Shown: positions 19,357-62,656 of the stretch, piece by piece
Layout of the letters: each line of letters starts with the position of its first letter
How positions within the stretch are numbered: position 1 is the first letter of the stretch
Assembly (NCBI RefSeq): GCF_005281475.1
Contig: NZ_CP040106.1
Coordinates: 2,012,501 to 2,076,500, forward strand
Direction of reading: 5' to 3'
Length of the DNA: 64,000 nucleotides
Source of the DNA: Echinicola rosea
GTDB taxonomy: Bacteria > Bacteroidota > Bacteroidia > Cytophagales > Cyclobacteriaceae
Made by a program: the position numbers and the translations under genes
Notes under the pieces: model-generated
Told to the model about the DNA's origin: nothing
The model's database searches: none
What the model saw: only the letters and a program-made list of their open reading frames with translations

Positions 19357-19380
19357 ATTCGATGCTGTATTATAGTGTGA

Positions 19381-19978: not shown

Positions 19979-19989
19979 TTCAAAAGTAA

Positions 19990-20010: not shown

Positions 20011-20192
20011 AGTATAAAAATAGAGCGTGTTGCCGTCGAAATAAAATAAGGTGACATGTTTCAGCTGTCGGTACTTTGCCCAAAGGCAGTGTGGTCTTGT
20101 AAACCTTCTTCAAATAGCCTTGTAAAAATTATAAGAAGGAAGTAGGCCAACAGGCTAATGCCTCCACCTCTAGAATGGGGTAAGGTTTAAAG

Positions 20193-20218
20193 AATATCCA
20201 GTTTCACCCCTGGATATT
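20193..20218 (+). promoter_or_regulatory. hairpin in the susC leader
   Basis: AATATCCAG (20193-20201) and CTGGATATT (20210-20218) pair perfectly with an 8-base loop, followed by TTATAAG. The hairpin ends 44 bases before the susC ATG. It could stabilise the mRNA or act as a weak attenuator; the U-run is too short for a firm terminator call. Confidence 0.45.
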
Positions 20219-20262
20219 TTATAAGAAAATACTTCAATCATAACAACTAAACACTAAACATT

Positions 20263-23200
20263 ATGATGAAAAATGTACTCGTTTTTCTATGTACTTTTTG
20301 TTTGTATGGCATCGTTGCTGGGCAAACAGTCCCGGTGACTGGAACAGTCACCGATGCTGATTCGGGAGAGCCTATTCCCGCGGCAAATATTTTAATAAAA
20401 GGAACCGCTAAAGGGATGGTTTCAGATGTGGATGGATCCTATCGGATTTCCGTTGAAGCAGGTCAGGTCTTGGTGTTTTCCTTTATAGGATATGATTCCC
20501 GGGAAGTCGTAGTAGGAGATCAAGAGGAGGTTAATGTTGCCTTAAAATCGAGCGCGTCCGACCTTGATGAATTCGTGGTCGTTGGGTATCAGTCGGTAGT
20601 CAAAAGGGATGTGACAGGAGCTGTGAACAATATTCAAAGTGAACAGTTAGAAGCCATTCCTGTTACGAATGTAGCGACCTTGATCGGTACCCAAAGCACC
20701 GGTATTCAAAGTGTCAATATAAGTGGTGCTGCGGGTGCCAGGGGTGCTTTGGTCATTAGGGGAAATACGGCAGTATCCAGTGGTCTTGATGGAGGAGAGC
20801 GGTTTACGGCATTTAGTAGCCCGCTCTACGTAGTCGATGGTGTCCAGACCTCTCTAGAGGACTTGGCAGGTTATGGGGTTTCCAACACGGATTATTTGGC
20901 TTCACTGAATCCAAATGACATTGAAAGCATTGATATATTGAAAGATGCTTCAGCATCTGCCATTTATGGATCAAGAGGGGCGAATGGTGTGATCATTATC
21001 AAGACCAAGCGTGGACAAGCTTTGGATAAGCCTCAGTTTGATTTCTCCACAAGTATAGGGTTTCAGCCAATTCCTAATTTGGTGCCCATGCTGGTCGGGG
21101 CTGCAGAAAGAAGAGAAAAAATGGGTATGCTTGAAAAATGGTGGGATCATGAGTTCTTGCTTTCTAATCAGGTACCCATTATGCTGACGGACAGTCTCAA
21201 TCCTGCATTTAATAACAATGTGGATTACCAAGGGCTGTTTTATCAAAAAGGCGTCTCACAGCGGTACAACCTGAGCATGAGAGGAGGCAGCGAGGAGACC
21301 AATTACCGTTTGTCATTTGGGTACAATGATGACAAAGGTGTAGTGAAGGCCACAGGCTTTACGCGATACACGCTTAACGCCCATGTAAATACTAAGGTGG
21401 GAAAGAAATTCACGAACCAATTTCTGGTAAACACTTCCTTTACGGAAAACAAAACCGGCCAGGGAAACCCGGGCGGTGGATCGTTTAACTTGGACAACAG
21501 TCTCCCTACAAGTCCCAATAGCCTGAACTCATCGTTGTTTTATTTGACGGAGGCGAAGCGAAAGTCCCTGGAGGGAGAGCTGGATGAAAAGCTCAATACC
21601 GACGAACAGCTGAAAGTCACCTTCTCCAACTTTGCGCAATTGAAGATCATCGAAGGTTTGAAGCTTAATTCCCAGCTTACCTTTCAGTACGACCTGAACA
21701 AGAAGAACTTTTATGAGCCTTCTTCCATCAGGCCAAACGGCGATGGATTTGCAGCCTATTCCCTGTACACTAGGAAGAATCATGCGTCCGACCTCTATTT
21801 GGATTATTTTAAGACCTTGGGAGATCATGAGGTCATTGCTATAGTAGGTAACCGGGTGGATTATAACAAGTATGAAGACATGAGGATGTCAGCAGTAGGT
21901 TTCGGCAGTGATGCCATTCAGGTAATCAACAACAGGTATGAGAAAGACAATATCGATGGCTATACGGACATCAGTGAGAATGCCCTTCTTTCTTATTATG
22001 CCCGATTAAGTTATAAATACAAAGACAAGTACCTATTGAGTGCAAACTTCAGTACAGATGGTTCTTCTCGATTTGGTAAGGACGTCCGTTGGGCCAAATT
22101 CGGTTCCTTGTCCGCCGGTTGGGTGATTTCGGACGAGCCATTTCTGAAGGAGCTGGCCGGACATTGGTTGGATTTTGCAAAACTTCGGGCCAGCTGGGGC
22201 AGAAACGGTAAGCAATTTAGCCAAAATTACCTTCGATTCGGGGCTTATAGCTTGGGATATGGTGGTACGCCATCTGCTGGCTACAACACTAACCAAATGA
22301 ATGTCTCTTCTTACGGTGGAGTAACCGGTATTATACCAAACTATGGCTCAATTGGCAATGACAAACTGTCCTGGGAAGAATCAGAACAGTGGAACATTGG
22401 GTTTGATATCGCCATGCTGGATCAGCGGCTAAACCTTACATTTGATGCGTATCATAAGGATACGGACCAGCTGTTCTTTGATATTGATTTTCCATCCTAT
22501 TCTGGGTATAACACAGCCAAGGCTAACGTGGCCGGAGTGCTGAACTACGGTTGGGAAGGCCAGATTCGATATGATATTTTCCCCAGAGCCAGCCACTGGA
22601 AACTTCAGCTTACTGCTGGTTTTGCCAAAAACGAGAATTATGTCAGCAAATTGCCAAATGGCAACAGGGATTACCTAATCGGATCCTATGGCTATATCGT
22701 TGGGCGCCCGCTAAACCTTTACAACATCTTCCTCAATGACTATATCATTGACAACTTGGAGCAATTGCCAGTCAATCCATACACGGGAGAACCCCTCACT
22801 GGAAAATCAGCATGGGCTGCTATCCGTCCTGGGCTTCCGATTTGGAAAGATATTAATGGAGATTATTTGTTGGACGAAGCAGGTGATCAGATCATGGCCT
22901 TGGAATACTCTCCTGTTCCTGACATACAGGGCAATTTCAATATTGACCTCCGCTATAAGGGCTGGTACCTGCAGGCCTACAGTCAGTTCTCTTTTGGCGC
23001 GGATATTATGAACACGGTATTGAACAGCTATATGGATAGGTATGACAGAGGTGGTACAGACTGGGCCACATTTGGGCTTGCAGATCTTAGCGAGCATACA
23101 TTCTGGGAAAAGCCGGGTGATGGGGCTGCAGGTGTGCGCTTTCCTGCTTTGTTCCCTGCTGGTGGAGGCGAACCACCCTTTTATGCTTTCAGGGGAAATC

Positions 23201-23457
23201 AGTCTTTATGGATAGAAAGTGGAGATTACTGGAAGATCACCAATGCTTCTGTAGGCCACATGTTCAATAAGGATTCCTTCATTAAAAACTTAGGCCTGAG
23301 CCGACTAAGGGTTTATATCTCAGTGTTGAATCCTTACCAATGGCAAAAATCCAAGAACGTCGTAGATGCCTCAATGGTAGATGCCCGAGGATATGTATTG
23401 GGTAATGGCTACCCTCAAGCGCAAACTTATTTCTTTGGTCTAGATGCAAGATTCTAA
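20263..23457 (+). CDS. SusC-like TonB-dependent outer-membrane transporter
   Basis: The 1064-residue protein starts with a Sec signal (MMKNVLVFLCTFCLYGIVAGQ). A carboxypeptidase-D regulatory-like domain follows (about 25-95, VTGTVTDADSGEPIPAANI). Next come a TonB-box-like stretch (DEFVVVGYQS), the plug domain (VTGAVNNIQSEQLEAIP to ASASAIYGSRGANGVIIIKT) and a large beta-barrel ending in a terminal aromatic (LDARF). SusC proteins pull oligosaccharides across the outer membrane under SusD lids. It begins a four-gene run with 12-24 base gaps. The ligand is unknown; the GH95 neighbour suggests a fucose- or galactose-bearing glycan. Confidence 0.94.
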   Translation: MMKNVLVFLCTFCLYGIVAGQTVPVTGTVTDADSGEPIPAANILIKGTAKGMVSDVDGSYRISVEAGQVLVFSFIGYDSREVVVGDQEEVNVALKSSASDLDEFVVVGYQSVVKRDVTGAVNNIQSEQLEAIPVTNVATLIGTQSTGIQSVNISGAAGARGALVIRGNTAVSSGLDGGERFTAFSSPLYVVDGVQTSLEDLAGYGVSNTDYLASLNPNDIESIDILKDASASAIYGSRGANGVIIIKTKRGQALDKPQFDFSTSIGFQPIPNLVPMLVGAAERREKMGMLEKWWDHEFLLSNQVPIMLTDSLNPAFNNNVDYQGLFYQKGVSQRYNLSMRGGSEETNYRLSFGYNDDKGVVKATGFTRYTLNAHVNTKVGKKFTNQFLVNTSFTENKTGQGNPGGGSFNLDNSLPTSPNSLNSSLFYLTEAKRKSLEGELDEKLNTDEQLKVTFSNFAQLKIIEGLKLNSQLTFQYDLNKKNFYEPSSIRPNGDGFAAYSLYTRKNHASDLYLDYFKTLGDHEVIAIVGNRVDYNKYEDMRMSAVGFGSDAIQVINNRYEKDNIDGYTDISENALLSYYARLSYKYKDKYLLSANFSTDGSSRFGKDVRWAKFGSLSAGWVISDEPFLKELAGHWLDFAKLRASWGRNGKQFSQNYLRFGAYSLGYGGTPSAGYNTNQMNVSSYGGVTGIIPNYGSIGNDKLSWEESEQWNIGFDIAMLDQRLNLTFDAYHKDTDQLFFDIDFPSYSGYNTAKANVAGVLNYGWEGQIRYDIFPRASHWKLQLTAGFAKNENYVSKLPNGNRDYLIGSYGYIVGRPLNLYNIFLNDYIIDNLEQLPVNPYTGEPLTGKSAWAAIRPGLPIWKDINGDYLLDEAGDQIMALEYSPVPDIQGNFNIDLRYKGWYLQAYSQFSFGADIMNTVLNSYMDRYDRGGTDWATFGLADLSEHTFWEKPGDGAAGVRFPALFPAGGGEPPFYAFRGNQSLWIESGDYWKITNASVGHMFNKDSFIKNLGLSRLRVYISVLNPYQWQKSKNVVDASMVDARGYVLGNGYPQAQTYFFGLDARF

Positions 23458-23469
23458 AAACTGAATACC

Positions 23470-25008
23470 ATGAAAAAATTCCTAAAAATATATTTAACTA
23501 TTCTGACGGCCTTCACTCTTGGTTTTTCCAGTTGTTCGGGCATTTTGGATCAGGAGCCCATTACCATCACACATCCAGATGTGTACTGGAGTTCGCAGAG
23601 TGAAGCAGAACAAGCTTTGGCGGGGTCTTATGCCTTGCTTAAAAATGCATTATTGACACAATCAAGTTTCTTGATATGGGGTGAATTCCCTGCCATGACC
23701 CTTATGGACAGTCAGTTCTGGATAATGGACTATATCGAAAACAGTGGAAACTATAGCCTTCCTTATCGAGGAGAGACGGCTGAGTGGAAGTTGTTTTATA
23801 GGGCCGCCAACTGGGCCTTTACGATAGAAAAATATGTAAATGAGATGCCTGAAGAGCTATTTACTACCCGTCAGGAAAAGGACAGGATATTGGGAGAAGC
23901 AGCTTTTGTAAGGGCATTGTCTTACTTTTATTTGGCGCGAATATGGGGCGATGTCCCGATTGTCCATGAATCGATAGAGACCTCTGATCAGCTGATTACG
24001 GAGGATGGTTTTATCGTAGAAATAGGCCGATCAGACGAGAAGGAAGTGCTGCAGTACATCTTGGAAGCCACAGATAAAGCCATTAGCCTATTGCAATATT
24101 CAAACCCAAGCAATCAGCGGTGGGCTATTTTTGCCAATAAAGCTAGTGCTGAGGCCTTGAAAGCCCACGTATCACTTTGGTATGCCAGTAGGGATGGCGA
24201 AAATCCCGAAATGATCCAGCAGAGCATCGATGCGGCTACTTCGGTCATCAATAATAGTAACGCTAGCTTGATCGATTATGTAGCCGAAGGCAATGAAGGG
24301 TTTGAAAACATGGTAAGGGGTCAATCCAAAACCGGTCTTTTTGAGCTCAATGTCAGCACAGATGTCGATGAGTCGTACCGAGTGACCAATGGCAATAGCA
24401 CAGCCCCTGGATTAACCCTTAACCAACCCATCCTTGGAGGGAACAATGGGACTGCGCCGGTGGGCAACCCTGACTTCTATGGATTTGAGTTTATGGCACA
24501 GGCAGAAAGGGATACGGACGTGAGAAAGGACCTTTTCTTCTTTGATTTTGAGGATGTGGGGCCAAGTACCTTTCCAATGAAGTACGCATTGAGTTCTGAT
24601 GATCCAGATTCTGAAGATGTCTATGCTGTATTTTCGGAATCAAATATCTTGATTTTTAGATTGGCCGACATTTACCTGTTGAGAGCAGAGGCTTATACCA
24701 GACAAGGTAATTATGCGGGTGCCCTCTCAGACCTGGACTTGGTACGCAGTAAGGCGGGCGTTCCTGCGTATGAAGGGCCTTCGGACCGTCCAAGTCTCAT
24801 TAAGGCCATTTTTGATGAAAGGGCCATTGAGCTAGTTGCCGAAGGGCATGTTGCATTTGATCGGATACGGATGGACTACTTCGAAGGAGTGTCTTGGATG
24901 GGCAGTGACAGGAAAGCCAAAAAGGGGTATTTCTGGCCAGTAGCTCCAAGTATCATTATCAAAAACCCTTCCATCGTACAGACTGAGTACTGGCAAGGAC
25001 GTTTATAA
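23470..25008 (+). CDS. SusD/RagB-like glycan-binding lipoprotein
   Basis: The 512-residue lipoprotein has signal MKKFLKIYLTILTAFTLGFSSC with a lipobox before the Cys. It shows the SusD pattern: DQEPITITHPDVYWSSQSEAEQALAGSYALL at the start, GEAAFVRALSYFYLARIWGDVPIV in the TPR-like core, and the C-terminal RLADIYLLRAEAYTRQGNYAGALSDLDLVRSKAG followed by IFDERAIELVAEGHVAFDRIRMD. It caps the SusC barrel at the cell surface and binds the incoming glycan. It starts 12 bases after the SusC stop. Confidence 0.93.
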   Translation: MKKFLKIYLTILTAFTLGFSSCSGILDQEPITITHPDVYWSSQSEAEQALAGSYALLKNALLTQSSFLIWGEFPAMTLMDSQFWIMDYIENSGNYSLPYRGETAEWKLFYRAANWAFTIEKYVNEMPEELFTTRQEKDRILGEAAFVRALSYFYLARIWGDVPIVHESIETSDQLITEDGFIVEIGRSDEKEVLQYILEATDKAISLLQYSNPSNQRWAIFANKASAEALKAHVSLWYASRDGENPEMIQQSIDAATSVINNSNASLIDYVAEGNEGFENMVRGQSKTGLFELNVSTDVDESYRVTNGNSTAPGLTLNQPILGGNNGTAPVGNPDFYGFEFMAQAERDTDVRKDLFFFDFEDVGPSTFPMKYALSSDDPDSEDVYAVFSESNILIFRLADIYLLRAEAYTRQGNYAGALSDLDLVRSKAGVPAYEGPSDRPSLIKAIFDERAIELVAEGHVAFDRIRMDYFEGVSWMGSDRKAKKGYFWPVAPSIIIKNPSIVQTEYWQGRL

Positions 25009-34215: not shown

Positions 34216-34992
34216 TTACTGGATGGGATATCCTTTGGCGGCCCACCAGATGCCTCCATAGACGTGATCTAAGAAGTCATCATCTTCATAGGCTGCTTCC
34301 ACATGGCCCAGCGCGGTGTAAAATACCCGACCACTGTCGTATTCATGGTACCAGGACATCGGGTGTACGTCACCCATTGCCATTGATTTTCCATCCCTGG
34401 AACCTGGGTCATAAGATGTCTCGTCCAACTGGATAAGTATGTGGACATCTTCATTGAAGTTCTTGAAAGCATACCATTCGTCTGTCCAAAGCCACTTTTC
34501 GTTCAGGTGGTAGGTGGCGGGATGGTTGCTGTCCACTACGTTTAGCCTGGCGGTTTGCTGAGCAGGATGGTGCATGAACTGACCGCCGATCAATTTAGTG
34601 TACCAGTCCCAATTATATTCCGTGTCCGTAGCACTATGGATGCCTACCACTCCCTTTCCGCTTTGCACAAACCGCTTGAATGCGGCTTTTTGATCGTCAT
34701 TAAGAATGTCCCCTGTGGTACTGGCCATGATGATGACATCATAATCCTTTAAAGCATCATCATTGAAAATAGTAGCGTCTTCTGTAGCGTACACACTGAA
34801 CACACGGGTTTTGGCCATGTCTTTTAGGGCCTTTACGGCGTTGGGGATGGATTGGTGTCTAAACCCTTGGGTTTTGCTGAAAATAAGGGCCTTGAATTGA
34901 CCACGCTGGGCAAAGGATTGACCAGAAAATAAAAGGGTGGTGATTAGTAAAAAGGAGCCAATGAGCATCGACTTCCGGTTAATGAGCTTCAT
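34216..34992 (-). CDS. ThuA-like domain protein, exported
   Basis: The 258-residue protein has a Sec signal (RKSMLIGSFLLITTLLFSGQSFA) and then a ThuA fold of the glutamine-amidotransferase-like type. Features are KALIFSKTQGFRHQSIPNAVKAL, DYDVIIMASTTGDILNDDQKAAFKRFV, the metal-site motif GIHSATDTEYNWDWYTKLIGGQF, and HPMSWYHEYDSGRVFYTALGHVEAAYEDD. ThuA-like proteins take part in use of 3-keto sugars and glycosides in several bacteria. Here the gene is alone, but a full set of 3-keto-glycoside genes lies 20 kb away (53.3-62.7 kb). The Sec signal puts it in the same compartment as part of that set. Confidence 0.85.
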   Translation of the reverse strand: MKLINRKSMLIGSFLLITTLLFSGQSFAQRGQFKALIFSKTQGFRHQSIPNAVKALKDMAKTRVFSVYATEDATIFNDDALKDYDVIIMASTTGDILNDDQKAAFKRFVQSGKGVVGIHSATDTEYNWDWYTKLIGGQFMHHPAQQTARLNVVDSNHPATYHLNEKWLWTDEWYAFKNFNEDVHILIQLDETSYDPGSRDGKSMAMGDVHPMSWYHEYDSGRVFYTALGHVEAAYEDDDFLDHVYGGIWWAAKGYPIQ

Positions 34993-53319: not shown

Positions 53320-54078
53320 CTACAACTCCTTGATCATAATATTCTTAAACCAGATGTTGTTTCCATGGTCTTGCAGGGCGATTTTGCCTTTTTGGTATTG
53401 GCCAAAGCCTTCCGTGTTTTTGAATTTACTATTGGCAATAAGTTCCTTCCAGCTATCGTCCCAAAGCGTGGTTTCAACTGTTTTTACGCCATTTAGGATA
53501 AAGGTTAACTTACCTTGGTCGATGATGATTTCGGAGGTGTTCCATTCGCCAACAGGATTTTCAGCTTCCTCAGTAGCTTTGATCAGGTCGTAAAGGTCAC
53601 CTGTACGGTGTTTTTCGATTTTGCCATCGGGATGACCGTCGTTGTCCAGCAGTTGGTATTCAGGCCCAGTATTCCAGGAATGTTTATATTTATCCAGTTC
53701 CTGTACCAAAAATATGATGCCGCTGTTCCCGTTTTCAGATATCTTCCAATCCAGTTTCAAGTGGAAGTTATCATAGGCCTTTTCAGTAACGATATCTCCG
53801 CCACCATTTACTTGCCAGTTTTCTTTATTGGAAGCGTCCAGATAGAGCACGCCATCCTCCACTTTCCAAGCAGGACCCACGGTTTCTTTATTATAGGTGG
53901 TCCATCCGTCGAGGTTTTGGCCATTGAAAAGCTTGGTCCATTCTCCCTTGGAGGATGTTTCAGTTTTTAGCGCTACTTCTTCTTTGACGGATTCGTTTTC
54001 AGTGTTTCCGTTCTCAGCAGAACCACATGCTGCGGCCATAAGGCTGATTACAGATAGGGATAATATCGTTTTTTTCAT
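53320..54078 (-). CDS. DUF1080 lipoprotein, 3-keto-glycoside hydrolase/hydratase-like
   Basis: The protein has 252 residues from ATG 54078 (MKKTILSLSVISLMAAACGS, lipobox before Cys). The DUF1080 (3-keto-disaccharide hydrolase) domain follows: WTKLFNGQNLDGWTTYN, FHLKLDWKISENGNSGIIFLVQE, GPEYQLLDNDGHPDG, DLYDLIKATEEAENPVGEWNTSEIIIDQG and a final ALQDHGNNIWFKNIMIKEL. Proteins of this family act on 3-keto glycosides in the periplasm, as hydrolase or as hydratase of the enol product. It lies last in a minus-strand set with a cytochrome c, a TIM-barrel protein and a Gfo/Idh oxidoreductase. Confidence 0.9.
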   Translation of the reverse strand: MKKTILSLSVISLMAAACGSAENGNTENESVKEEVALKTETSSKGEWTKLFNGQNLDGWTTYNKETVGPAWKVEDGVLYLDASNKENWQVNGGGDIVTEKAYDNFHLKLDWKISENGNSGIIFLVQELDKYKHSWNTGPEYQLLDNDGHPDGKIEKHRTGDLYDLIKATEEAENPVGEWNTSEIIIDQGKLTFILNGVKTVETTLWDDSWKELIANSKFKNTEGFGQYQKGKIALQDHGNNIWFKNIMIKEL

Positions 54079-54129
54079 AGAAATTAATTTATAAAAGAGG
54101 TATGTCAAAGTCCCCTTTAAGGTTTAGGG

Positions 54130-54555
54130 TTATTTCTTGAGCATTAGGACGTATTTCACCATTTTCTTGGCATCGTCTTCAGAAAGGCCCGGGTGAGCAG
54201 GCATGGGGACTTGTCCCCAAACCCCGTTATTTCCTTCGATTACTCTTTTGGCAAGGGTCTCGATGTTTTCGTCGGTGCTTTCATATTTTTCGGCCACATC
54301 TTTATAGGCGGGACCTACGATTTTTCTTTCCACCATATGGCAGCTAGGGCAGTCAGACTCCTTTACCAAGGCCAGGCCATCGACATAATCGGGATTGTCT
54401 TTGTACATTTCGTCAAAGCTCATGTCCTTTTTAGGGGCTGCTGTTTCAGTTGTTGCCGTCGTTTCTTCTGATTTTGTGTCTGACCCACCGCCACAAGCGT
54501 AGGCCACTCCTGCAAGTGCGATAGCACCTGCGCTGGCTAATTTACTTAAGTTCAT
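54130..54555 (-). CDS. c-type cytochrome lipoprotein, single haem
   Basis: The 141-residue protein has a lipoprotein-like start (SAGAIALAGVAYAC) and a spacer rich in Thr and Glu. One haem site CPSCH follows, with Met ligands likely in VPMPAHPGLSEDDAKKMVKYVLML. It is a small class I cytochrome c tethered in the periplasm. Beside the GMC/subunit 3 dehydrogenase genes of this cluster it is the obvious electron acceptor. It lies 52 bases upstream of the DUF1080 start. Confidence 0.9.
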   Translation of the reverse strand: MNLSKLASAGAIALAGVAYACGGGSDTKSEETTATTETAAPKKDMSFDEMYKDNPDYVDGLALVKESDCPSCHMVERKIVGPAYKDVAEKYESTDENIETLAKRVIEGNNGVWGQVPMPAHPGLSEDDAKKMVKYVLMLKK

Positions 54556-54582
54556 TGGTTCTATAGGTTTGTTTGTATTTAA

Positions 54583-55635
54583 TTAAATTCCTAGCACTTT
54601 TTTGTTGAGCGCATCGTCAGTACCTGCAGAGGCAAAATCGTCAAAGGACTTTTCCGTTACCCTGATGATTTTTTCACTGATAAATTTAGCTCCTTCGATT
54701 GCTCCCGCTTCAGGGTGCTTGATGGCACATTCCCATTCCAAAACTGCCCAGCCATCAAATCCGTACTGGGACAATTTACTGAAGATGGCATTGAAGTCCA
54801 CCTGTCCGTCACCGAGTGAGCGGAACCTTCCGGCACGGTCGATCCAGCTTTGGTAGCCACCATAGACGCCTTGTTTTCCTGTAGGATTGAATTCTGCGTC
54901 TTTGACATGAAACATCTTGATCCTGTCTTTGTAGAAATCGATGAATTGCACATAATCCAAGCACTGCAATACGAAGTGGCTCGGATCATAAAGGATATTG
55001 GCCCTGGGGTGGTGGTTTACTTTCTCCAGGAACATCTCAAACGTCACTCCGTCATGCAGGTCTTCTCCCGGGTGTAATTCATAGCATAAATCTACACCAT
55101 TTTTATCAAATTCATCTAAAATAGGAATCCACCTTTTGGCCAACTCCTCAAATCCTGCTTCTACCAACCCTGCTGGACGTTGTGGCCAAGGGTAAACGGT
55201 GTGCCACATCAGGGCGCCACTGAAGGTGCCATGCTTGGTCAGTCCCAAATTTTTGGATGCTTTGGCAGCATACATGAGTTGTTGTGTGGCCCAGGCTGAT
55301 TTGCCTTTGAGGTCTCCTTTAAGCTCCTCGGGAGCAAATGCATCAAACAATTCATTATAAGCAGGATTGATTGCGACGAGTTGCCCCTGGAGGTGAGTGC
55401 TCAGTTCGGAGATTTCCAAACCGGCATCCTGTACAGTTTTTTGAATTTCATCAGCATAGTTTTTGTCTTCTGCTGCTTTTTTCAAATCCATTAGTCTGCC
55501 GTCCCAAGAAGGTATCTGAACGGCCTTGTAGCCTATGCTCGCTGCCCATTCACAGATGCTTTTGAGGCTGTTGAAGGGTGCTTGGTCATCTACAAATTGC
55601 GCTAAAAATAACGCAGGGCCTTTGATGGTCTTCAT
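54583..55635 (-). CDS. sugar phosphate isomerase/epimerase-like TIM barrel, cytosolic
   Basis: The 350-residue protein belongs to the xylose-isomerase-like TIM-barrel family. Candidate metal ligands lie in DLCYELHPGEDLHDG, ANILYDPSHFVLQ, IKMFHVKDAEFNPTG and WAVLEWECAIKHPEAGA. No signal peptide is present, unlike the other two barrels of this cluster (58530 and 61748), so it should act in the cytoplasm. It sits between the cytochrome and the Gfo/Idh gene. A step after uptake, such as isomerising or epimerising the keto sugar, is likely. Confidence 0.87.
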   Translation of the reverse strand: MKTIKGPALFLAQFVDDQAPFNSLKSICEWAASIGYKAVQIPSWDGRLMDLKKAAEDKNYADEIQKTVQDAGLEISELSTHLQGQLVAINPAYNELFDAFAPEELKGDLKGKSAWATQQLMYAAKASKNLGLTKHGTFSGALMWHTVYPWPQRPAGLVEAGFEELAKRWIPILDEFDKNGVDLCYELHPGEDLHDGVTFEMFLEKVNHHPRANILYDPSHFVLQCLDYVQFIDFYKDRIKMFHVKDAEFNPTGKQGVYGGYQSWIDRAGRFRSLGDGQVDFNAIFSKLSQYGFDGWAVLEWECAIKHPEAGAIEGAKFISEKIIRVTEKSFDDFASAGTDDALNKKVLGI

Positions 55636-55819
55636 ACGATAGGGTTTTTTTAAGTTTATTAAATTAATCGTTTTAGCAAATGAATTGAGAATGCAAAATA
55701 CATTCTTTCACGCTATTCTTTAAATATTTTGATGGCTTTTTGTTACCAATGTTTTGCAAGGGAGCCTTTTTGGGGCCAAAAGGTAGTCGGTCAGGCGCCT
55801 TTTCAGGAAGAAAAACAGC

Positions 55820-56986
55820 CTAAACTTCAAGTTTTGTCCATTTTTGCTCAGACTGGCCACTTTTTACGACTTGCTCGATAAAGGCCATGCCCCTCACCCC
55901 ATCATCGGCGCCCGGGAAATCCAGCCATTCTTTTTCAGGTGTTTGACCGTTTATTTTGGCCAATAAGGTTTTTGTAAAATTGTTATAATGATTGGCAAAA
56001 GCCTCTAAATAGCCTTCCGGATGGCCGGCTGGAGTTCTGGTGTTGGCCAGGGCATAACTGGAAAGATAGGGCACATTGCCTCCTGCGCGGTAAATCTGAT
56101 CGGGTTGTTCGGGGTGGCGGAGGATCAGGGAATTGGCGTCTTCCTGTTGCCATTCCAGTCCTGCCTTGTCTCCATATACCCTTATTTTGAGGTTGTTTTC
56201 AGCGCCGGATGCCACTTGGCTGGCCATGAGGACTCCGGAGGCACCGTTGTCAAACTTCAGGAGGACGATTCCATCATCATCCAGTGTCCTGCCATCGACG
56301 ATGGTGTTGAGGTCAGCGCAGAGCTTATCGAGCTTCAATCCACTGACATATTCGGCCAGGTTCATGGCATGTGTGCCGATATCACCCATGCAGCCGGCTA
56401 CGCCACTTTTTTTAGGATCTGTACGCCAAGCCGCTTGTTTGTTTCCTTCATCAGAAAAATCCTTCCAAAGCCAGCCTTGAGGGTACTCAACATACACTTT
56501 TCTGATGTTTCCCAAGGTGCCATTGGCGATGAGCTGCCGGGCTTCCTTTACCATCGGATAGCCAGTGTAAGTATGGGTGAGGCAAAACAGCATGCCGGTT
56601 TGCTCAATGGTCTTTTCCAACTGCTTGGCTTCGTCCAGTGTAAGGGTCATGGGTTTGTCCAGGACCACATGAAAACCATTTTGAAGGGCCTTGATGGTCG
56701 GGTCGAAGTGTACGTGGTTTGGTGTCACGATACTGACAAAGTCTATTCTTTCTCCCTCGGGAAGTTGTTTTTCTTTTTCATACATTTCATCGTATGATTG
56801 ATAGACACGGCTGCTGTCGAGGGAGAGTTCCTTTCCTGCCTGCTCGGATTTTTCAGGCTTGCTACTGAATGCTCCTGCTACCAATTCAATTTTTCCGTCC
56901 ATATTGGCGGCGATACGGTGTACGGCTCCTATGAATGAGCCCGGTCCTCCACCGATCATACCCATTCGGAGTTTACGATGATTCAT
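55820..56986 (-). CDS. Gfo/Idh/MocA family oxidoreductase
   Basis: The 388-residue protein has an N-terminal Rossmann motif GMIGGGPGSFIGAVHRIAA, the family Lys in HVVLDKPMTLTLDEAKQLE, and a C-terminal substrate domain with GDIGTHAMNLAEYVSGL (His of the active site). No export signal is present, so it is cytosolic. NAD(P)-dependent enzymes of this type reduce 3-keto sugars to the parent sugar. It leads the minus-strand half of the cluster, divergent from the permease gene. Confidence 0.9.
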   Translation of the reverse strand: MNHRKLRMGMIGGGPGSFIGAVHRIAANMDGKIELVAGAFSSKPEKSEQAGKELSLDSSRVYQSYDEMYEKEKQLPEGERIDFVSIVTPNHVHFDPTIKALQNGFHVVLDKPMTLTLDEAKQLEKTIEQTGMLFCLTHTYTGYPMVKEARQLIANGTLGNIRKVYVEYPQGWLWKDFSDEGNKQAAWRTDPKKSGVAGCMGDIGTHAMNLAEYVSGLKLDKLCADLNTIVDGRTLDDDGIVLLKFDNGASGVLMASQVASGAENNLKIRVYGDKAGLEWQQEDANSLILRHPEQPDQIYRAGGNVPYLSSYALANTRTPAGHPEGYLEAFANHYNNFTKTLLAKINGQTPEKEWLDFPGADDGVRGMAFIEQVVKSGQSEQKWTKLEV

Positions 56987-57283
56987 AATTTTTGCTATTT
57001 TAGAATTTGATATGTTTTTTCAATTTGTTTTGGACACGAAAGTTATTGCTGCCTTCTCCTTGCTGTTTTTATTCGAGATCAAATGATTTTTTATTGATCA
57101 ATAGCGATATAGCAATGTGAGTGGCAATGATTCGTAATACAGAACCATTATACTTACGTCTTTGTCTCGGCAAAACTAAAATTAAGCGAAAAACACTAAA
57201 ATTTAAATTATTATTTAAGTAGTTTGGCTTTTTCTTTTTAAGTTGAGAATTAATAATTGCACAAAAAAACCTATTAAAAACCT
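56987..57283. promoter_or_regulatory. divergent control region of the 3-keto-glycoside cluster
   Basis: About 300 AT-rich bases separate the Gfo/Idh and permease starts, and promoters for both arms should lie here. No convincing TTG/TAnnTTTG pair or operator was identified, and no regulator gene is adjacent. Confidence 0.45.
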
Positions 57284-58516
57284 ATGAGTTTCAATACGAA
57301 GTTTAAGCTGTCCTTTATGATGTTCCTCGAATTCTTCATTTGGGGAGGTTGGTTTGTCACCTTGGGGTTATTCCTTGGAAACAACTTAGGGACGAATGGA
57401 GCACAGGATGCAGCTGTGTTTTCGACACAATCGCTGGGAGCCATTATCGCTCCTTTTATTATTGGGTTGATTGCCGACAAGTACTTTAATGCAGAACGGA
57501 TTTTGGGAATACTTCATCTGATTGGTGCGGTATTGATGTACCTCATGTACACCGCAACTGATTTTGAATCGTTTTACCCTTATGTGTTTGCCTACATGGT
57601 GGCCTATATGCCCACATTGGCCTTGGTGAATTCGGTTTCCTTTAATCAGATGAGCAATCCTGAAAAGGAATTTGGTGTCATCCGGGTGTGGGGAACGATT
57701 GGTTGGATCGTAGCCGGTTTGGTGATCAGTTTGGTGTTTGCTTGGGATTCCACGGAAAATGCAGCAGCTGGAATGTTGAAATATACCTTTTTGATGACTT
57801 GCATCGCCTCGTTGGTATTGGGTGTTTACAGCTTTATGCTGCCGAAGACGCCTCCAAAAATTGCCAAAGGCGAGAAAAAGTCCATCTCAGAGATTCTGGG
57901 GCTTGATGCATTTACACTTCTAAAAGACAGGAATTACTTGGTTTTCTTTTTGTCTTCGGTATTGATTTGTATCCCCCTTGCCTTTTATTATCAAAATGCC
58001 AGTAAATTTTTCGGTGAGATCGGTATGACGAATCTTACCAGTAAAATGGCCTTAGGGCAAGGCAGTGAGGTGCTCTTCATGCTGTTGCTTCCGATCTTCT
58101 TTGGTAAATTCGGTGTAAAGAAAACCTTGTTGGTAGGCATGTTGGCTTGGGTGGTCCGTTATGCGCTGTTTGCCTTTGGTAATGTCGGGGAGCTTTCTTT
58201 TATGCTTCTGACGGGAATTGCCCTTCATGGGATTTGCTATGACTTCTTTTTTGTTTCCGGGCAGATTTACACAGACTCCAAAGCAGGCGAAAAGTTCAAG
58301 AGTGCTGCGCAGGGAATGATTACCCTCGCTACCTATGGCGTGGGCATGCTGATCGGCTTTTGGGTAGCAGGATGGGCATATGACACCTATGAAATGAGTG
58401 ACAAAGTCCACGACTGGAAGACAATCTGGTTGATTCCGTCTGGAATTGCCGTATTGGTAGCCCTGATCTTTGCCGTGGCTTTTAAACAGAAAAAACCTAC
58501 GCCTGTAGAGGCTTAA
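57284..58516 (+). CDS. MFS permease, nucleoside/sugar-proton symporter-like (NupG)
   Basis: The 410-residue protein has about 12 membrane helices. The motif FMMFLEFFIWGGWFVTLGLFL at the start and IGLIADKYFNAERILGILHLIGA match NupG/XapB-type nucleoside symporters. In this cluster it probably carries a sugar, most likely a 3-keto sugar, from the periplasm to the cytosol. It begins the plus-strand arm; the TIM-barrel gene follows 13 bases later. Confidence 0.88.
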   Translation: MSFNTKFKLSFMMFLEFFIWGGWFVTLGLFLGNNLGTNGAQDAAVFSTQSLGAIIAPFIIGLIADKYFNAERILGILHLIGAVLMYLMYTATDFESFYPYVFAYMVAYMPTLALVNSVSFNQMSNPEKEFGVIRVWGTIGWIVAGLVISLVFAWDSTENAAAGMLKYTFLMTCIASLVLGVYSFMLPKTPPKIAKGEKKSISEILGLDAFTLLKDRNYLVFFLSSVLICIPLAFYYQNASKFFGEIGMTNLTSKMALGQGSEVLFMLLLPIFFGKFGVKKTLLVGMLAWVVRYALFAFGNVGELSFMLLTGIALHGICYDFFFVSGQIYTDSKAGEKFKSAAQGMITLATYGVGMLIGFWVAGWAYDTYEMSDKVHDWKTIWLIPSGIAVLVALIFAVAFKQKKPTPVEA

Positions 58517-58529
58517 ATATTTTGTCAGA

Positions 58530-59393
58530 ATGAAGCCTCGTAGATCAGCAATAAAGAAAATGATGGTGGGGTCAGCAGTGCTTAGTGGCTTGCCCTACTT
58601 GAATCTCAAAGCAAAAAATAAAGACATGTTGAAAGGAAATATAAACCATTCTGTGTGCCGATGGACATATGGCCATCTGTCACTCGATGAGTTATGTGTA
58701 CTGATTAAAGATATTGGATTTAATGCCATTGACCTGCTAGGCCCTGATGATTGGCCTACGGCCCAAAAGCATGGGGTGTACAGCTCCATGTGCAATGGTG
58801 CAGAGATCAGTCTTGAGGAGGGGTTTAGCCATTCGGAATACCACGATACCCTCATCAAAAACTATACGGAAATGATCCCCCTCGTGGCCAAAAACGGTTA
58901 CAAAAACCTGATTTGCTTTAGTGGGAACAGAAATGGTATGGACGATGAAACAGGCCTTCAAAACAGTGTAAAGGGGCTACAGAAATTATTGCCCCTAGCA
59001 GAAAAGCACGGCGTTACCCTGACCATGGAATTGCTAAACAGCAAGGTGAATCATCCGGATTATATGTGTGATAAAAGCGTTTGGGGAGTAGAATTGTGCA
59101 AGCGGCTGGACAATGAAAATTTCAACCTCCTATATGACATTTATCATATGCAAATCGATGAAGGAGACGTGATCCGTACGATTGGTGAGAATCATCAGTA
59201 TTATGGACATTATCATACAGCAGGAAATCCGGGCAGAAATGAAATCGATGATACCCAGGAGCTAAATTACCCTGCAATCATTAAAGCCATTGCGAAAACA
59301 GGCTTTAAGGGCTATATTGCCCAGGAGTTTATCCCAAAGGCTGATGACAAGGCCGCGTCACTCAGGGAGGCCATCGCCTTATGTGACATATAA
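58530..59393 (+). CDS. hydroxypyruvate-isomerase-like TIM barrel, Tat-type signal
   Basis: The 287-residue protein starts with a twin-arginine-like signal (MKPRRSAIKKMMVGSAVLSG). The barrel matches the Hyi group: TMELLNSKVNHPDYMCDKS, LLYDIYHMQIDEGDV, GHYHTAGNPGRNEIDDTQELNYP and YIAQEFIPKADD, holding the metal Glu, Asp, His and Glu. True hydroxypyruvate isomerases are cytosolic, so export suggests another job, likely acting on 3-keto glycosides by elimination or isomerisation. It lies between the permease and the GMC gene. Confidence 0.85.
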   Translation: MKPRRSAIKKMMVGSAVLSGLPYLNLKAKNKDMLKGNINHSVCRWTYGHLSLDELCVLIKDIGFNAIDLLGPDDWPTAQKHGVYSSMCNGAEISLEEGFSHSEYHDTLIKNYTEMIPLVAKNGYKNLICFSGNRNGMDDETGLQNSVKGLQKLLPLAEKHGVTLTMELLNSKVNHPDYMCDKSVWGVELCKRLDNENFNLLYDIYHMQIDEGDVIRTIGENHQYYGHYHTAGNPGRNEIDDTQELNYPAIIKAIAKTGFKGYIAQEFIPKADDKAASLREAIALCDI

Positions 59394-59428
59394 ACCAGAA
59401 TAACCTAATAAAAACCTATAGATGAATT

Positions 59429-61108
59429 ATGGCAAATCAAGAGTATGATGCAATTGTCGTCGGCTCAGGTATCAGCGGCGGCTGGGCTGCTAAGGAGTTG
59501 ACAGAGAAAGGGCTCAAGGTTTTGTTACTCGAAAGGGGGCAAAATGTGGAGCACGTAAAAGACTATAAGAATGCGACCTTACCTCCATGGGAAATACCCC
59601 ATAGAGGAAGAGCGACCACCGAAATGATCGAAAATCACCCTAACCTAAAACGTGACTATGTACTGAACGAACTGGTGTTGGATTGGTGGGCACATGAAGA
59701 TACTTCTCCCTACGTGGAGGAGAAACCCTTTACCTGGTTCAGGGGCTATCAGGTGGGTGGTAGGTCATTGCTTTGGGGCAGACAGAGTTACCGCTGGTCA
59801 GACCTGGATTTTGAAGCCAATTTGAAGGAAGGTATTGCCGTGGATTGGCCAATCAGGTATAAGGACATCGCTCCTTGGTACGATTATGTAGAGAAATTCG
59901 CTGGGATTGCAGGAAATAAAGACGGCCTGGACGTATTGCCAGATGGGCAGTTTATGCCGCCATTTGCGATGAACTGTGTGGAAAAGGACGTAAAGGAGCG
60001 GATAACAAAAAAATTCGAAGGAAAACGTCACCTGATCAATTCCCGGGTGGCCAATATTACAGAGCCACTTCCGGGAAGGCCGGGCTGTCAAGCGAGGAAT
60101 AAGTGTTGGTTAGGCTGTCCTTTTGGAGGGTATTTCAGTACACAGGCTTCTACCCTGCCGGCTGCGATGGCTACCGGAAACCTAACCCTTCGTCCATATT
60201 CCATTGTCCACCGTGTATTGTACGATAAAGACACTAAGAAAGCGACGGGAGTAGAAATCGTGGATGCTGAGACCATGGAAACCATCGAGTATAAATCCAA
60301 GATTGTATTCCTTTGTGCTTCGGCCCTTAATTCTGCTCACGTATTGATGCGCTCGGCAACCGATATCTGGCCGGAAGGACTAGGCAGTAGTTCTGGTGAG
60401 CTAGGCCATAATGTGATGGACCATCATTTTAGACTTGGAGCAAGCGGCTCCGTGGAAGGGTACGATGATAAATATTATTTTGGTAGAAGGCCAGGAGGCA
60501 TTTATATACCACGGTACAGGAATGTAGGAGACGACAAGCGTGACTACGTGCGTGGTTTTGGCTACCAAGGCGGAGCAAGTAGAAGTGGATGGGGCAGAAA
60601 TGTCGCAGAAATGAATATCGGAGGGCCATTGAAGGAAGCCCTTACCGAGCCAGGGCCTTGGAGCATGGGCATGATGGCTTTTGGCGAAATCCTGCCTTAC
60701 CACGAAAACACGATCAAGATCAGTAAAGATGTGAAGGATAAGTGGGGCATGTATGCACTGGTCATGAATGCTGAGATCAAGGACAATGAGCAGAAGATGC
60801 GTAAGGATATGATGAATGATGCCGCTGAAATGCTGGAAGCAGCAGGGGTCAAGAATATCCATACCTATGATTCTGGCTATACCTTCGGACAGGGAATTCA
60901 CGAAATGGGAACCGCTCGCATGGGCAGGGATCCCAAAACCTCCGTCCTGAACGAAAACAACCAAGTATGGGATGCCAAAAACGTGTTTGTGACTGATGGG
61001 GCAGCGATGACGTCTGCGGCTGCGGTAAATCCGTCACTGACCTATATGGCACTGACGGCCCGAGCAGCAGATTTTGCTGTGAAGGAACTCAAAAAAGGAA
61101 ACCTTTAA
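59429..61108 (+). CDS. GMC oxidoreductase, probable glycoside 3-dehydrogenase large subunit
   Basis: The 559-residue flavoenzyme has an N-terminal FAD motif IVVGSGISGGWAAKEL, VGGRSLLWGRQSYRWSDLDFEA and the active-site His in GIHEMGTARMG with Asn in AAVNPSLTYMAL. Cys220, Cys226 and Cys230 (CX5CX3C) lie where the FAD glucose dehydrogenase alpha subunit has a cysteine set for a 3Fe-4S cluster. There is no signal peptide; it probably leaves the cell by riding on the Tat-bearing small subunit encoded 18 bases downstream. Members of this type oxidise the C3 hydroxyl of glycosides. Electrons could pass to the cluster's cytochrome c. Confidence 0.93.
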   Translation: MANQEYDAIVVGSGISGGWAAKELTEKGLKVLLLERGQNVEHVKDYKNATLPPWEIPHRGRATTEMIENHPNLKRDYVLNELVLDWWAHEDTSPYVEEKPFTWFRGYQVGGRSLLWGRQSYRWSDLDFEANLKEGIAVDWPIRYKDIAPWYDYVEKFAGIAGNKDGLDVLPDGQFMPPFAMNCVEKDVKERITKKFEGKRHLINSRVANITEPLPGRPGCQARNKCWLGCPFGGYFSTQASTLPAAMATGNLTLRPYSIVHRVLYDKDTKKATGVEIVDAETMETIEYKSKIVFLCASALNSAHVLMRSATDIWPEGLGSSSGELGHNVMDHHFRLGASGSVEGYDDKYYFGRRPGGIYIPRYRNVGDDKRDYVRGFGYQGGASRSGWGRNVAEMNIGGPLKEALTEPGPWSMGMMAFGEILPYHENTIKISKDVKDKWGMYALVMNAEIKDNEQKMRKDMMNDAAEMLEAAGVKNIHTYDSGYTFGQGIHEMGTARMGRDPKTSVLNENNQVWDAKNVFVTDGAAMTSAAAVNPSLTYMALTARAADFAVKELKKGNL

Positions 61109-61126
61109 CCCAAAACGACACGAATT

Positions 61127-61678
61127 ATGGCAATGAACAGAAGAGATGCACTGAAGAGCTTTGCGCTCATGATGGGCGGGACCATGGTAGGAGCAAATGC
61201 CCTGCTGACAGGGTGTACGCCTGATAAGCAAATAGAAGGGCTGGACTTTAGCCCTGAAGAAATCGCCTTTCTGGACGAAATCGGCGATACAATCATCCCG
61301 ACCACGGATACCCCTGGGGCGAAGGCTGTGGGAATAGGTTCCTTTATGGTCATGATGGTCAAGGATACTTATTGGGAAGAGGAACAGAAGCAGTTTGTGG
61401 ATGGCTTGAACAGTCTAAGGAAGGGGTTCAAAGAGGAGGTAGGAAAAGACTTTGTGGAGGCCTCCCAGGAAGAACGAACCGCTTATCTCAATAAACTAAA
61501 TGCAGCAGCCAAAAATGAAGATGGCCCGAAGTATTTCAACATGTTAAAAGACCTCACTGTACTGGGGTATTTTACTTCTGAAATAGGCGCTACCCAAGCG
61601 CTGAATTATGTGGAAGTCCCAGGCAAGTGGGAACCATGCATCGACTACAAAAAAGGGGATAAAGCATACGCTATCTAA
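61127..61678 (+). CDS. gluconate 2-dehydrogenase subunit 3 family protein, Tat lipoprotein
   Basis: The 183-residue protein has a twin-arginine signal with lipobox (MNRRDALKSFALMMGGTMVGANALLTGC). The subunit 3 block follows: FSPEEIAFLDEIGDTIIPTTDTPGAKAVGIGSFMVMMVKDTY. Such subunits carry the GMC flavoprotein across the membrane and anchor it. It starts 18 bases after the GMC gene and is followed by a terminator. Confidence 0.93.
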   Translation: MAMNRRDALKSFALMMGGTMVGANALLTGCTPDKQIEGLDFSPEEIAFLDEIGDTIIPTTDTPGAKAVGIGSFMVMMVKDTYWEEEQKQFVDGLNSLRKGFKEEVGKDFVEASQEERTAYLNKLNAAAKNEDGPKYFNMLKDLTVLGYFTSEIGATQALNYVEVPGKWEPCIDYKKGDKAYAI

Positions 61679-61687
61679 CTCCCTGCA

Positions 61688-61723
61688 AACGGAACAACGC
61701 AGGTGCGCTGTTCCGTTTTTTTT
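61688..61723 (+). terminator. terminator after the subunit 3 gene
   Basis: AACGGAACA (61688-61696) pairs perfectly with TGTTCCGTT (61709-61717), inner CGC/GCG adds strength, and TTTTTT follows. It lies between the dehydrogenase pair and the last TIM-barrel gene, whose ATG is 25 bases on. Confidence 0.88.
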
Positions 61724-61747
61724 ACAATCATTAATCAAAACCCTATT

Positions 61748-62656
61748 ATGAACAAAAGAAGGAAGTTTTTAAAGCTGGGAGCAGCTTTTACTGCGGGATC
61801 ATTTTTGCCCTTACAGTTTTGTTCTTCTCCCAAAAGTGGAAGTGAAACGGCCGTCGTAGAGGAGGCGGTAAAGGAATCCGTTAAGGAAAAGTTGGAGAGC
61901 TTTGGGATCCAGCTGTACTCGGTAAAGGGAGATATGGCAGAGAATGCCCAAGAAGCCATTAAGAAGATAGCAGGGTATGGCTATCATCAGATCGAAGGCT
62001 TTGACGGTGGCAAAGGGATCTTTTGGGGAATGAAGAACACGGAGTTCAAGTCGTTTACGGAAGATTTGGGGCTTGACTTTGTCGCTTCCCATGCCAATGT
62101 TTTTGAGAATACAGAGAAGCTGGCTGCTGAAGCGGGGGAGATTGGGATGAAATACCTGATCGCACCATATGTGGGGGCACAGGAATCCATGGAAGATTGG
62201 AAAAAAATGGCGGATAGCTTTAATAAGGTAGGAGAGATTTGCAAGTCTAACGGACTGCGCTTTGCTTACCATAACCATGGCTATACGTTTGAAGCATTGG
62301 AAGGCCAGATGCCGCAAGATTTCCTTTTGGAAAATACCGATCCTGATTTGGTGGATTTTGAACTTGATATCTATTGGGCGGTGACAGCCGGCGCTGACCC
62401 ACAGGCATATTTTGAGAAGTACAAAAACCGTTTTAGGCTTTGCCACGTGAAAGACCGCGAAAAAGGAGCGCCAGCTGGAGAGCATAATGCCTCTACTGTG
62501 CTAGGTACGGGCACTATTGATTATGGTGAGGTACTTAGAACAGCAAAGGATAATGGTATGCAGTATTTTATAGTGGAGCAAGAGAAGTTCTCTGGTGCCA
62601 CGCCAATGGAGGCAGCGGAAAAAAATGCTTCCTATTTGAAGGGACTTGAAATTTAA
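61748..62656 (+). CDS. sugar phosphate isomerase/epimerase-like TIM barrel, Tat lipoprotein
   Basis: The protein has 302 residues from ATG 61748 (MNKRRKFLKLGAAFTAGS); earlier residues fall inside the terminator. The signal is twin-arginine with a Cys at LPLQFC that could be lipidated. The barrel has YGYHQIEGFDGG, LRFAYHNHGYTFEALEGQMPQDF, VDFELDIYWAVTAGADPQAYF, FRLCHVKDREKGA and YFIVEQEKFSGATP, with metal ligands Glu, Asp, His and Glu. Periplasmic barrels of this group with DUF1080 partners cleave 3-keto glycosides. It comes after a terminator, so it may be expressed at a lower or separate level. Confidence 0.87.
   Translation: MNKRRKFLKLGAAFTAGSFLPLQFCSSPKSGSETAVVEEAVKESVKEKLESFGIQLYSVKGDMAENAQEAIKKIAGYGYHQIEGFDGGKGIFWGMKNTEFKSFTEDLGLDFVASHANVFENTEKLAAEAGEIGMKYLIAPYVGAQESMEDWKKMADSFNKVGEICKSNGLRFAYHNHGYTFEALEGQMPQDFLLENTDPDLVDFELDIYWAVTAGADPQAYFEKYKNRFRLCHVKDREKGAPAGEHNASTVLGTGTIDYGEVLRTAKDNGMQYFIVEQEKFSGATPMEAAEKNASYLKGLEI

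What the first reader, a model, noticed from the sequence alone, without database searches (positions are those of the whole stretch)
53320..62656. Divergent cluster for an envelope glycoside 3-oxidation pathway, with compartments that fit the reaction order
Nine genes in two divergent arms include each part of a 3-keto-glycoside route. They encode a GMC flavoprotein with Tat-bearing subunit 3, a cytochrome c, two exported TIM barrels, a DUF1080 lipoprotein, a NupG-like permease, a cytosolic TIM barrel and a Gfo/Idh reductase. Seen: the genes and their export signals. Known: these families take part in 3-keto sugar use in other bacteria. Inferred: that they form one pathway here, with oxidation, cleavage and hydration in the periplasm, import of a 3-keto sugar, then reduction in the cytosol. 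There is no glycoside hydrolase in the cluster, so it would be an alternative to classic hydrolysis.
Basis: partly seen in the sequence, partly recalled or inferred. Interest (0 to 1): 0.75.

Follow-up and report, generated by a model that had tools for sequence, protein, structure and literature searches.

The report
Known 3-keto-glycoside cluster, hydration relocated
A Bacteroidota genome carries a complete and widely conserved nine-gene set for breaking sugar bonds by oxidising the sugar first instead of hydrolysing it; this kind of pathway is already known, but the gene set suggests that the water-adding enzyme sits inside the cell, which makes the identity of the imported intermediate a testable question.

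Summary
In detail: nine intact genes in two divergent arms (53320-62656), with the stated families and export signals. The pathway reading is well supported, but the kind is not new. Price et al. [quoted passage not shown] They name Indibacter alkaliphilus LW1 as having similar genes together, and a locus of that strain fetched here holds all nine window genes in the same divergent order. The unexported TIM barrel (54583-55635) is 67% identical over its full length to AtHYD, a reported 2-hydroxy-3-keto-glucal hydratase, and shows no Tat motif or lipobox in 80 of 80 relatives. So the best-supported hydration step is cytosolic, next to Gfo/Idh reduction. The exported TIM barrel at 61748-62656 matches the 3-keto-beta-glucopyranoside-1,2-lyases AL1/BT1 in fold and active-site residues. 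[quoted passage not shown] The substrate is unknown and no activity was tested.

The parts
53320..54078 (-). DUF1080/PF06439 exported lipoprotein, '3-keto-disaccharide hydrolase' family: periplasmic cleavage (elimination or net hydrolysis) of 3-keto-glycosides
   Evidence: PF06439 179 bits vs cut-off 26.8; solved relatives 4jqt, 8rr2, 8tda; present in 70 of 84 hydratase loci; hydrophobic leader in 69 of 69 relatives tested
54130..54555 (-). mono-haem cytochrome c lipoprotein (CPSCH), inferred electron acceptor of the dehydrogenase (LacB-like role)
   Evidence: PF00034 34.4 bits; in 73 of 84 loci; a cytochrome c of Rhizobium radiobacter accepts electrons from FAD-dependent glucoside 3-dehydrogenase, passage in PMC9915066 citing Miyazaki 2018
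54583..55635 (-). HYD: cytosolic TIM barrel, close relative of 2-hydroxy-3-keto-glucal hydratase AtHYD
   Evidence: 568 bits over 1-350 to 8ro4, 67% identity; no RR and no lipobox in 80 of 80 relatives; start codon exactly at residue 1 in 78 of 80; only match in the genome at E 1e-60 or better
55820..56986 (-). Gfo/Idh/MocA reductase, cytosolic, inferred 3-keto-hexose reductase
   Evidence: Pfam; 401 bits to 3v5n; in the fetched stretch with HYD in 82 of 84 loci; Bitter 2023 proposes that the Gfo protein of the A. tumefaciens operon reduces 3-keto-glucose (passages)
56987..57283 (.). 297-bp divergent intergenic region, presumed to hold both promoters (not tested)
   Evidence: sequence
57284..58516 (+). 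NupG-like MFS permease (PF03825), inferred importer of the keto product
   Evidence: PF03825 385.6 bits, cut-off 25.9; below the nucleoside-permease cut-off of TIGR00889, 370 vs 446; found in 28 of 84 loci; other MFS or ABC importers lie among the pathway genes in some other loci
58530..59393 (+). Tat-exported hydroxypyruvate-isomerase-like TIM barrel, role open (epimerase/isomerase or accessory lyase)
59429..61108 (+). GMC flavoprotein, inferred catalytic subunit of a glycoside 3-dehydrogenase (LacA-like)
   Evidence: GMC_oxred_N/C; aligned with fructose dehydrogenase large subunits including three Cys (C-X5-C-X3-C) and a C-terminal His and Asn; no signal of its own
61127..61678 (+). Gluconate_2-dh3 subunit 3 with Tat motif and lipobox, inferred to carry and anchor the GMC subunit (LacC-like)
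   Evidence: PF13618 133.6 bits; RR in 60 of 60 and lipobox in 52 of 60 relatives
61748..62656 (+). Tat-type exported TIM barrel, inferred 3-keto-beta-glycoside 1,2-lyase (beta-eliminase) of the AL1/BT1/AtOGE group

Best explanation
The nine genes are a complete 3-keto-glycoside catabolic module of the LacABC type. In the periplasm the GMC subunit, carried out and anchored by the Tat-lipoprotein subunit 3, oxidises C3 of a glycoside and passes electrons through FAD and a probable [3Fe-4S] cluster to the cytochrome c lipoprotein. The exported AL1/BT1-like TIM barrel (for beta-linked 3-keto-glycosides) and the DUF1080 lipoprotein (probably for other linkages or anomers) then release the aglycone by elimination. 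The resulting 2-hydroxy-3-keto-glycal, and any 3-keto-hexose formed outside, enter through the NupG-like permease. The cytosolic AtHYD-like hydratase turns the glycal into 3-keto-hexose, and the Gfo/Idh enzyme encoded beside it reduces this to a normal hexose. Shown here: gene content, export signals, residue conservation, synteny and its conservation. Inferred: every reaction, the transported species, the substrate and the role of the exported hydroxypyruvate-isomerase-like barrel.
For: Family assignments. Hydratase 67% identical to AtHYD 8ro4 over its whole length. Lyase fold and residues. GMC aligned with an electron-transfer dehydrogenase including the three cysteines. Conserved compartments across relatives. 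Members of the same nine families on a Hymenobacter and a Xanthomonas sacchari plasmid. Divergent GMC-HYD arrangement in 50 of 80 loci, same strand in 5, all nine genes in 16 of 80. Genome-level association 33 of 33. Published gene-fitness data for the Caulobacter equivalent on lactose (PMC9007349 section 10). The A. tumefaciens GlycDH, AtOGE, AtHYD and Gfo pathway (PMC10628242 passages).
Against: No activity data for any protein here. The substrate and the position oxidised cannot be read from sequence, and the closest solved GMC relatives are fructose and glucose dehydrogenases, which act at other carbons (recalled). Of 80 hydratase loci 25 have no GMC of 60% or more nearby (9 for lack of flank), 4 of 80 have only HYD and GFO, and eight Chitinophaga loci keep only the left arm, so the hydratase-reductase pair also occurs without this oxidase. 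In 13 of 33 sampled genomes HYD and GMC lie apart. If DUF1080 completes a net hydrolysis in the periplasm, as the description of BT2157 as 3-ketotrehalose hydrolase implies, the cytosolic hydratase would be a side route. The NupG-like permease is in only 28 of 84 loci, and in L068, L070 and L075 nothing lies between the arms. Some relatives have glycoside hydrolase genes nearby (GH3 in Croceicoccus, GH65 in Hymenobacter). The hydratase activity of AtHYD rests on a PDB name and on what Bitter 2023 call preliminary evidence.
Confidence: 0.75

Rival explanations
1. One reading: cleavage and hydration are both finished in the periplasm, chiefly by the DUF1080 protein, and the imported species is a free 3-keto-hexose that only needs reduction. 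The cytosolic barrel is a salvage enzyme or has another job.
For: The DUF1080 leader is hydrophobic in 69 of 69 relatives tested. BT2157, a DUF1080 protein, is described as a 3-ketotrehalose hydrolase and CCNA_01705 is proposed to be a periplasmic 3'-ketolactose hydrolase.
Against: The hydratase-like barrel is kept, without Tat motif or lipobox and with the reductase, across Bacteroidota and in the Pseudomonadota examined. An exported AL1/BT1-like lyase would deliver a glycal, not a hexose.
Confidence: 0.3
2. A dedicated lactose (3-keto-lactose) pathway equal to that of Caulobacter rather than a broad glycoside route.
For: The closest genetic data are for lactose, with raffinose and salicin also affected. 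Indibacter, counted by Price et al. as a lactose user and reported beta-galactosidase negative, has the cluster.
Against: [quoted passage not shown] GlycDH is broad on O-glycosides and also oxidises C-glucosides. No lactose-specific gene lies in the cluster.
Confidence: 0.15
3. An inositol or polyol pathway: IolE-like barrels, an IolG-like dehydrogenase and a NupG-like permease.
For: IolE TIGR04379 (64 and 67 bits) and IolG TIGR04380 (60 bits) give weak hits.
Against: All are far below their cut-offs of 290 and 355. AtHYD matches at 568 bits, and the GMC/subunit 3/cytochrome c and DUF1080 genes do not fit.
Confidence: 0.04
4. A fully cytosolic Lgd-type (levoglucosan) route using the Gfo/Idh protein as the oxidase.
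For: The best NCBIfam hit of the Gfo/Idh protein is levoglucosan dehydrogenase (118 bits). Loci L106 and L112 carry two Gfo/Idh genes with the hydratase and no GMC.
Against: Score far below the 650-bit cut-off. Here an exported oxidase and two exported lyase candidates are present and only one Gfo/Idh gene is in the cluster.
Confidence: 0.05

Closest known systems
lacABC / CCNA_01705 lactose 3-dehydrogenase cluster of Caulobacter crescentus, with relatives in Indibacter, Algoriphagus, Halomonas and Pedobacter (Price et al. 2022, PMC9007349; section 10 read, Fig 6B not seen)
   Same: [quoted passage not shown] The Indibacter LW1 locus L046 holds all nine window genes in the same divergent order.
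   Different: Substrate not tested here. Whether Caulobacter has the Tat-exported hydroxypyruvate-isomerase-like barrel was not checked, and I did not compare with the Caulobacter sequences themselves.
A. tumefaciens GlycDH-AtOGE-AtHYD-Gfo operon (Bitter et al. 2023, PMC10628242; passages read)
   Same: Same four chemical steps. HYD is 67% identical to AtHYD. The lyase shares fold and metal-site motif with AtOGE 8bvk.
   Different: The window adds DUF1080, cytochrome c and an MFS importer. Its lyase is closer to AL1/BT1 than to AtOGE and has an export signal. The location of AtOGE itself was not checked.
Alistipes AL1 / B. theta BT1 3-keto-glycoside lyases (PDB 8tcd, 8tcr, 8tct titles; Nasseri et al. 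2024 Nature is recalled, not held)
   Different: The B. theta system uses a Gfo/Idh-type glycoside 3-dehydrogenase (BT2158 family, PMC11300592 passages); the window's Gfo/Idh scores 42.5 bits vs cut-off 750 for it. Here the oxidase is a GMC flavoprotein with cytochrome c.
Levoglucosan pathway LgdA/B1/B2/C of Bacillus smithii (PMC7676230, passages read)
   Same: Oxidation, elimination, hydration, reduction.
   Different: NAD-dependent oxidase LgdA in place of a GMC/subunit 3/cytochrome c complex; four soluble enzymes were used in vitro.

Membership tests
LacABC-type glycoside 3-dehydrogenase cluster | GMC flavoprotein, PF13618 subunit and cytochrome c encoded together (make-up of LacA, LacB, LacC is recalled) | tested here: met
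LacABC-type glycoside 3-dehydrogenase cluster | DUF1080 protein, transporter, epimerase-like barrels and reductase encoded beside it | tested here: met
   Indibacter LW1 locus L046 has all nine
LacABC-type glycoside 3-dehydrogenase cluster | Sequence identity to Caulobacter LacA, LacB, LacC | not tested
   the Caulobacter sequences were not fetched
LacABC-type glycoside 3-dehydrogenase cluster | C3 oxidation of a glycoside | not testable with these tools
   needs purified enzyme
2-hydroxy-3-keto-glucal hydratase (AtHYD, 8ro4) | Full-length sequence similarity | tested here: met
   568 bits, 67% over 350 aa
2-hydroxy-3-keto-glucal hydratase (AtHYD, 8ro4) | Gfo/Idh reductase gene close by | tested here: met
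   in the window, and in the fetched stretch of 82 of 84 loci
2-hydroxy-3-keto-glucal hydratase (AtHYD, 8ro4) | Hydratase activity | not testable with these tools
   needs purified enzyme
3-keto-beta-glucopyranoside-1,2-lyase (AL1/BT1/AtOGE) | Same fold | tested here: met
   [not shown]
3-keto-beta-glucopyranoside-1,2-lyase (AL1/BT1/AtOGE) | Metal ligands His, Asp, His, Glu and catalytic His of AtOGE (H132, D163, H189, E233, H134) | tested here: met
   window YHNH, D, H, E at 97% or more in 41 sequences and aligned with the same residues of AL1; matched to AtOGE by motif, not residue by residue
PF06439 3-keto-disaccharide hydrolase | Pfam gathering score | tested here: met
   179.3 vs 26.8 bits
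BT_2158 glycoside 3-dehydrogenase NF058561 | NCBIfam cut-off 750 | tested here: not met
   42.5 bits
Levoglucosan dehydrogenase NF052479 | NCBIfam cut-off 650 | tested here: not met
   118.5 bits
Nucleoside permease TIGR00889 | NCBIfam cut-off 446.1 | tested here: not met
   370.3 bits, though PF03825 is met
Hydroxypyruvate isomerase TIGR03234 (58530-59393) | NCBIfam cut-off 353.45 | tested here: not met
   94.5 bits

The most novel reading that the evidence does not exclude
A compartment-split elimination pathway: the bond is cleaved outside by an exported AL1/BT1-type lyase, and the reactive enone 2-hydroxy-3-keto-glycal, not a sugar, is the imported species, carried by the NupG-like permease (perhaps by another MFS protein in some Chitinophagaceae and Pedobacter, and by an ABC importer in Rhodobacterales) to a hydratase and reductase that stay in the cytosol. 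This would answer the question, left open by Price et al. 2022, of what happens to the 3-keto sugar after LacABC, and would name transporters for such a compound.
Probability: 0.35. Interest if true: 0.55.

Novelty: new member of a known kind. Interest (0 to 1): 0.33.

Why it matters
Price et al. [quoted passage not shown] Related routes act on glycosides such as flavonoid O- and C-glucosides (PMC10628242 passages). The conserved split, with the oxidase and two lyase candidates exported and the hydratase and reductase not, gives a direct test: delete the permease and the hydratase and see which intermediate builds up and where.

Tried and rejected
Inositol pathway: IolE and IolG models far below cut-off. 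Levoglucosan route: Gfo/Idh far below cut-off. Nucleoside transport: below the TIGR00889 cut-off. A second copy of the pathway in the genome: the three other GMC/subunit 3 pairs (L130-L132, 16-19 kb each) have none of the other seven window genes nearby at E 1e-6 (L132 holds an ORF that by eye looks like an exported Gfo/Idh protein, not matched to the window's).

Papers: Nasseri 2024 and Arellano 2010 are not held. Searches returned no paper; searches led to the papers cited. I do not claim that anything is absent from print.

Counts of 84 add four plasmid loci that I picked from 317 records. Four more plasmid loci were picked from 37 GMC records. One of these, Rhizobium lentis L128 (GMC 32%), has no annotated subunit 3 beside it and no hydratase of this type; Agrobacterium L122 and Azospirillum L124 have hydratase and reductase but no annotated GMC of this kind. 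In one search I used the best 50 of 132 GMC rows; the other 82 add no new genome to the 20.
Full report
WHAT IS THERE. The window lies at 2012501-2076500 of a 6.06-Mb single-contig genome. Its nearest named relative by the hydratase is Echinicola shivajiensis (91%), and the 10 same-genus genomes match at 87-95%, so the host is most likely an Echinicola species (inference). Nine genes in two divergent arms span 53320-62656. Left arm, - strand: Gfo/Idh, TIM barrel without signal, cytochrome c lipoprotein, DUF1080 lipoprotein. Right arm, + strand: NupG-like permease, Tat-exported TIM barrel, GMC, subunit 3 with Tat motif and lipobox, second exported TIM barrel. Families are confirmed by Pfam. The flanks are a monomeric isocitrate dehydrogenase and a small SH3-domain protein. 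The nine genes include no classical glycoside hydrolase family.

CONSERVATION. Hydratase loci were drawn from named genomes: the best 80 of 585. With four plasmid loci (84 in all) the counts within the fetched stretch are GFO 82, cytochrome c 73, DUF1080 70, GMC 58, exported barrel 57, subunit 3 55, lyase 47, NupG-like permease 28. Among the 80, a GMC of 60% or more lies divergent to the hydratase in 50 and on the same strand in 5; 25 have none, 9 of them with less than 7 kb of flank; all nine genes are found in 16; 4 have only HYD and GFO. Eight Chitinophaga loci have the left arm (GFO, HYD, cytochrome c, DUF1080) and no right-arm gene in the stretch. In a sample of 148 Bacteroidota genomes the hydratase is in 33 and the GMC in 49, with all 33 hydratase genomes among the 49 (Fisher p 3e-21); 20 of 33 have GMC within 10 kb, 13 do not. 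All 10 same-genus genomes keep the pair about 5 kb apart. On plasmids, Hymenobacter and Xanthomonas sacchari carry members of all nine families, though the DUF1080 proteins (24% and 22%), and in Xanthomonas GFO (29%) and the lyase (25%), are distant, and the Xanthomonas cytochrome c has no detectable similarity to the window's. Ketogulonicigenium and Palleronia have an ABC sugar importer and no NupG-like gene annotated in the stretch. In L095 and L073 (Pedobacter) a different MFS protein (Pfam MFS_1, not PF03825) stands among the pathway genes, and L082 and L102 hold a look-alike of it by eye. In L068, L070 and L075 nothing lies between the arms; ORFs further out were not identified.

COMPARTMENTS. 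Among relatives, the RR motif is present in the hydroxypyruvate-isomerase-like barrel in 55 of 55, in subunit 3 in 60 of 60 (lipobox in 52) and in the lyase in 33 of 35. The DUF1080 leader is hydrophobic in 69 of 69. HYD shows neither RR nor lipobox in 80 of 80, GFO no lipobox in 77 and RR in 1 of 77. HYD begins exactly at residue 1 of the window protein in 78 of 80. The scan is crude, as told under Tried and rejected. In Ketogulonicigenium, Palleronia and Xanthomonas the lyase-like protein starts with a Sec-type leader while HYD and GFO do not (read by eye).

HOW IT MOST LIKELY WORKS. Outside: C3 oxidation, then elimination of the aglycone. [quoted passage not shown] Inside: hydration and reduction to hexose. 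That remains possible for the share of substrate handled by DUF1080, because BT2157 is described as a 3-ketotrehalose hydrolase, but it leaves the conserved cytosolic hydratase without a clear purpose. Every reaction is inferred from relatives. None was measured here.

WHAT IS KNOWN. Price et al. 2022 (PMC9007349; [quoted passage not shown] They report LacA and DUF1080 encoded near each other, with other proteins similar to that cluster, in Halomonas titanicae, Algoriphagus aquaeductus and Indibacter alkaliphilus, and leave the fate of 3-ketogalactose open. The Indibacter LW1 locus fetched here (L046) holds all nine window genes in the same divergent order. I infer that it is the cluster they mean; I did not see their figure. 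Bitter et al. 2023 (PMC10628242; passages) show GlycDH and AtOGE activities and give preliminary evidence for AtHYD, with reduction by the operon's Gfo protein. The AL1/BT1 names come from PDB titles; the Nature 2024 paper is recalled, not read.

VERDICT. A real, well conserved pathway cluster and a new member of a known kind. The useful addition is the likely compartment of the hydratase, which sharpens the question of what the permease imports.

Noticed in passing
window 34216-34992 (-): ThuA-family protein (PF06283, 264.6 bits) with a signal-like leader by eye, about 18 kb from the cluster. In Chitinophaga locus L097 a ThuA domain is fused with GSDH, PKD and cytochrome c domains, the last resembling the cluster's cytochrome, near the hydratase and DUF1080 genes, so ThuA may be another part of 3-keto-sugar metabolism.
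   Followed up: partly
window 16855-25008 (+): ORFs that read like a GH95-type glycosidase followed by a SusC/SusD pair, a separate polysaccharide utilisation locus (read by eye, families not searched).
   Followed up: no
L130 7887-10169, L131 6865-9196, L132 5920-8387 (own genome): Three further GMC/subunit 3 pairs, 59%, 46% and 33% identical to the window GMC, with none of the other seven window genes matching nearby.
   Followed up: partly
G157:C1:3906660-3908036 (same-genus genome): The GMC match beside the hydratase covers only residues 101-559 of the query, so this relative may have a shortened or broken GMC gene.
   Followed up: no
L106, L112, L069, L102: Hydratase and Gfo/Idh without the GMC arm; L106 and L112 carry a second Gfo/Idh gene beside them, as in a cytosolic Lgd-type route, suggesting that the cytosolic half is a reusable core.
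   Followed up: partly
own genome G000, e.g. G000:C1:3840701-3841978: Ten places over the PF06439 cut-off, two of them in one 471-aa open frame as a tandem DUF1080 protein.
   Followed up: no
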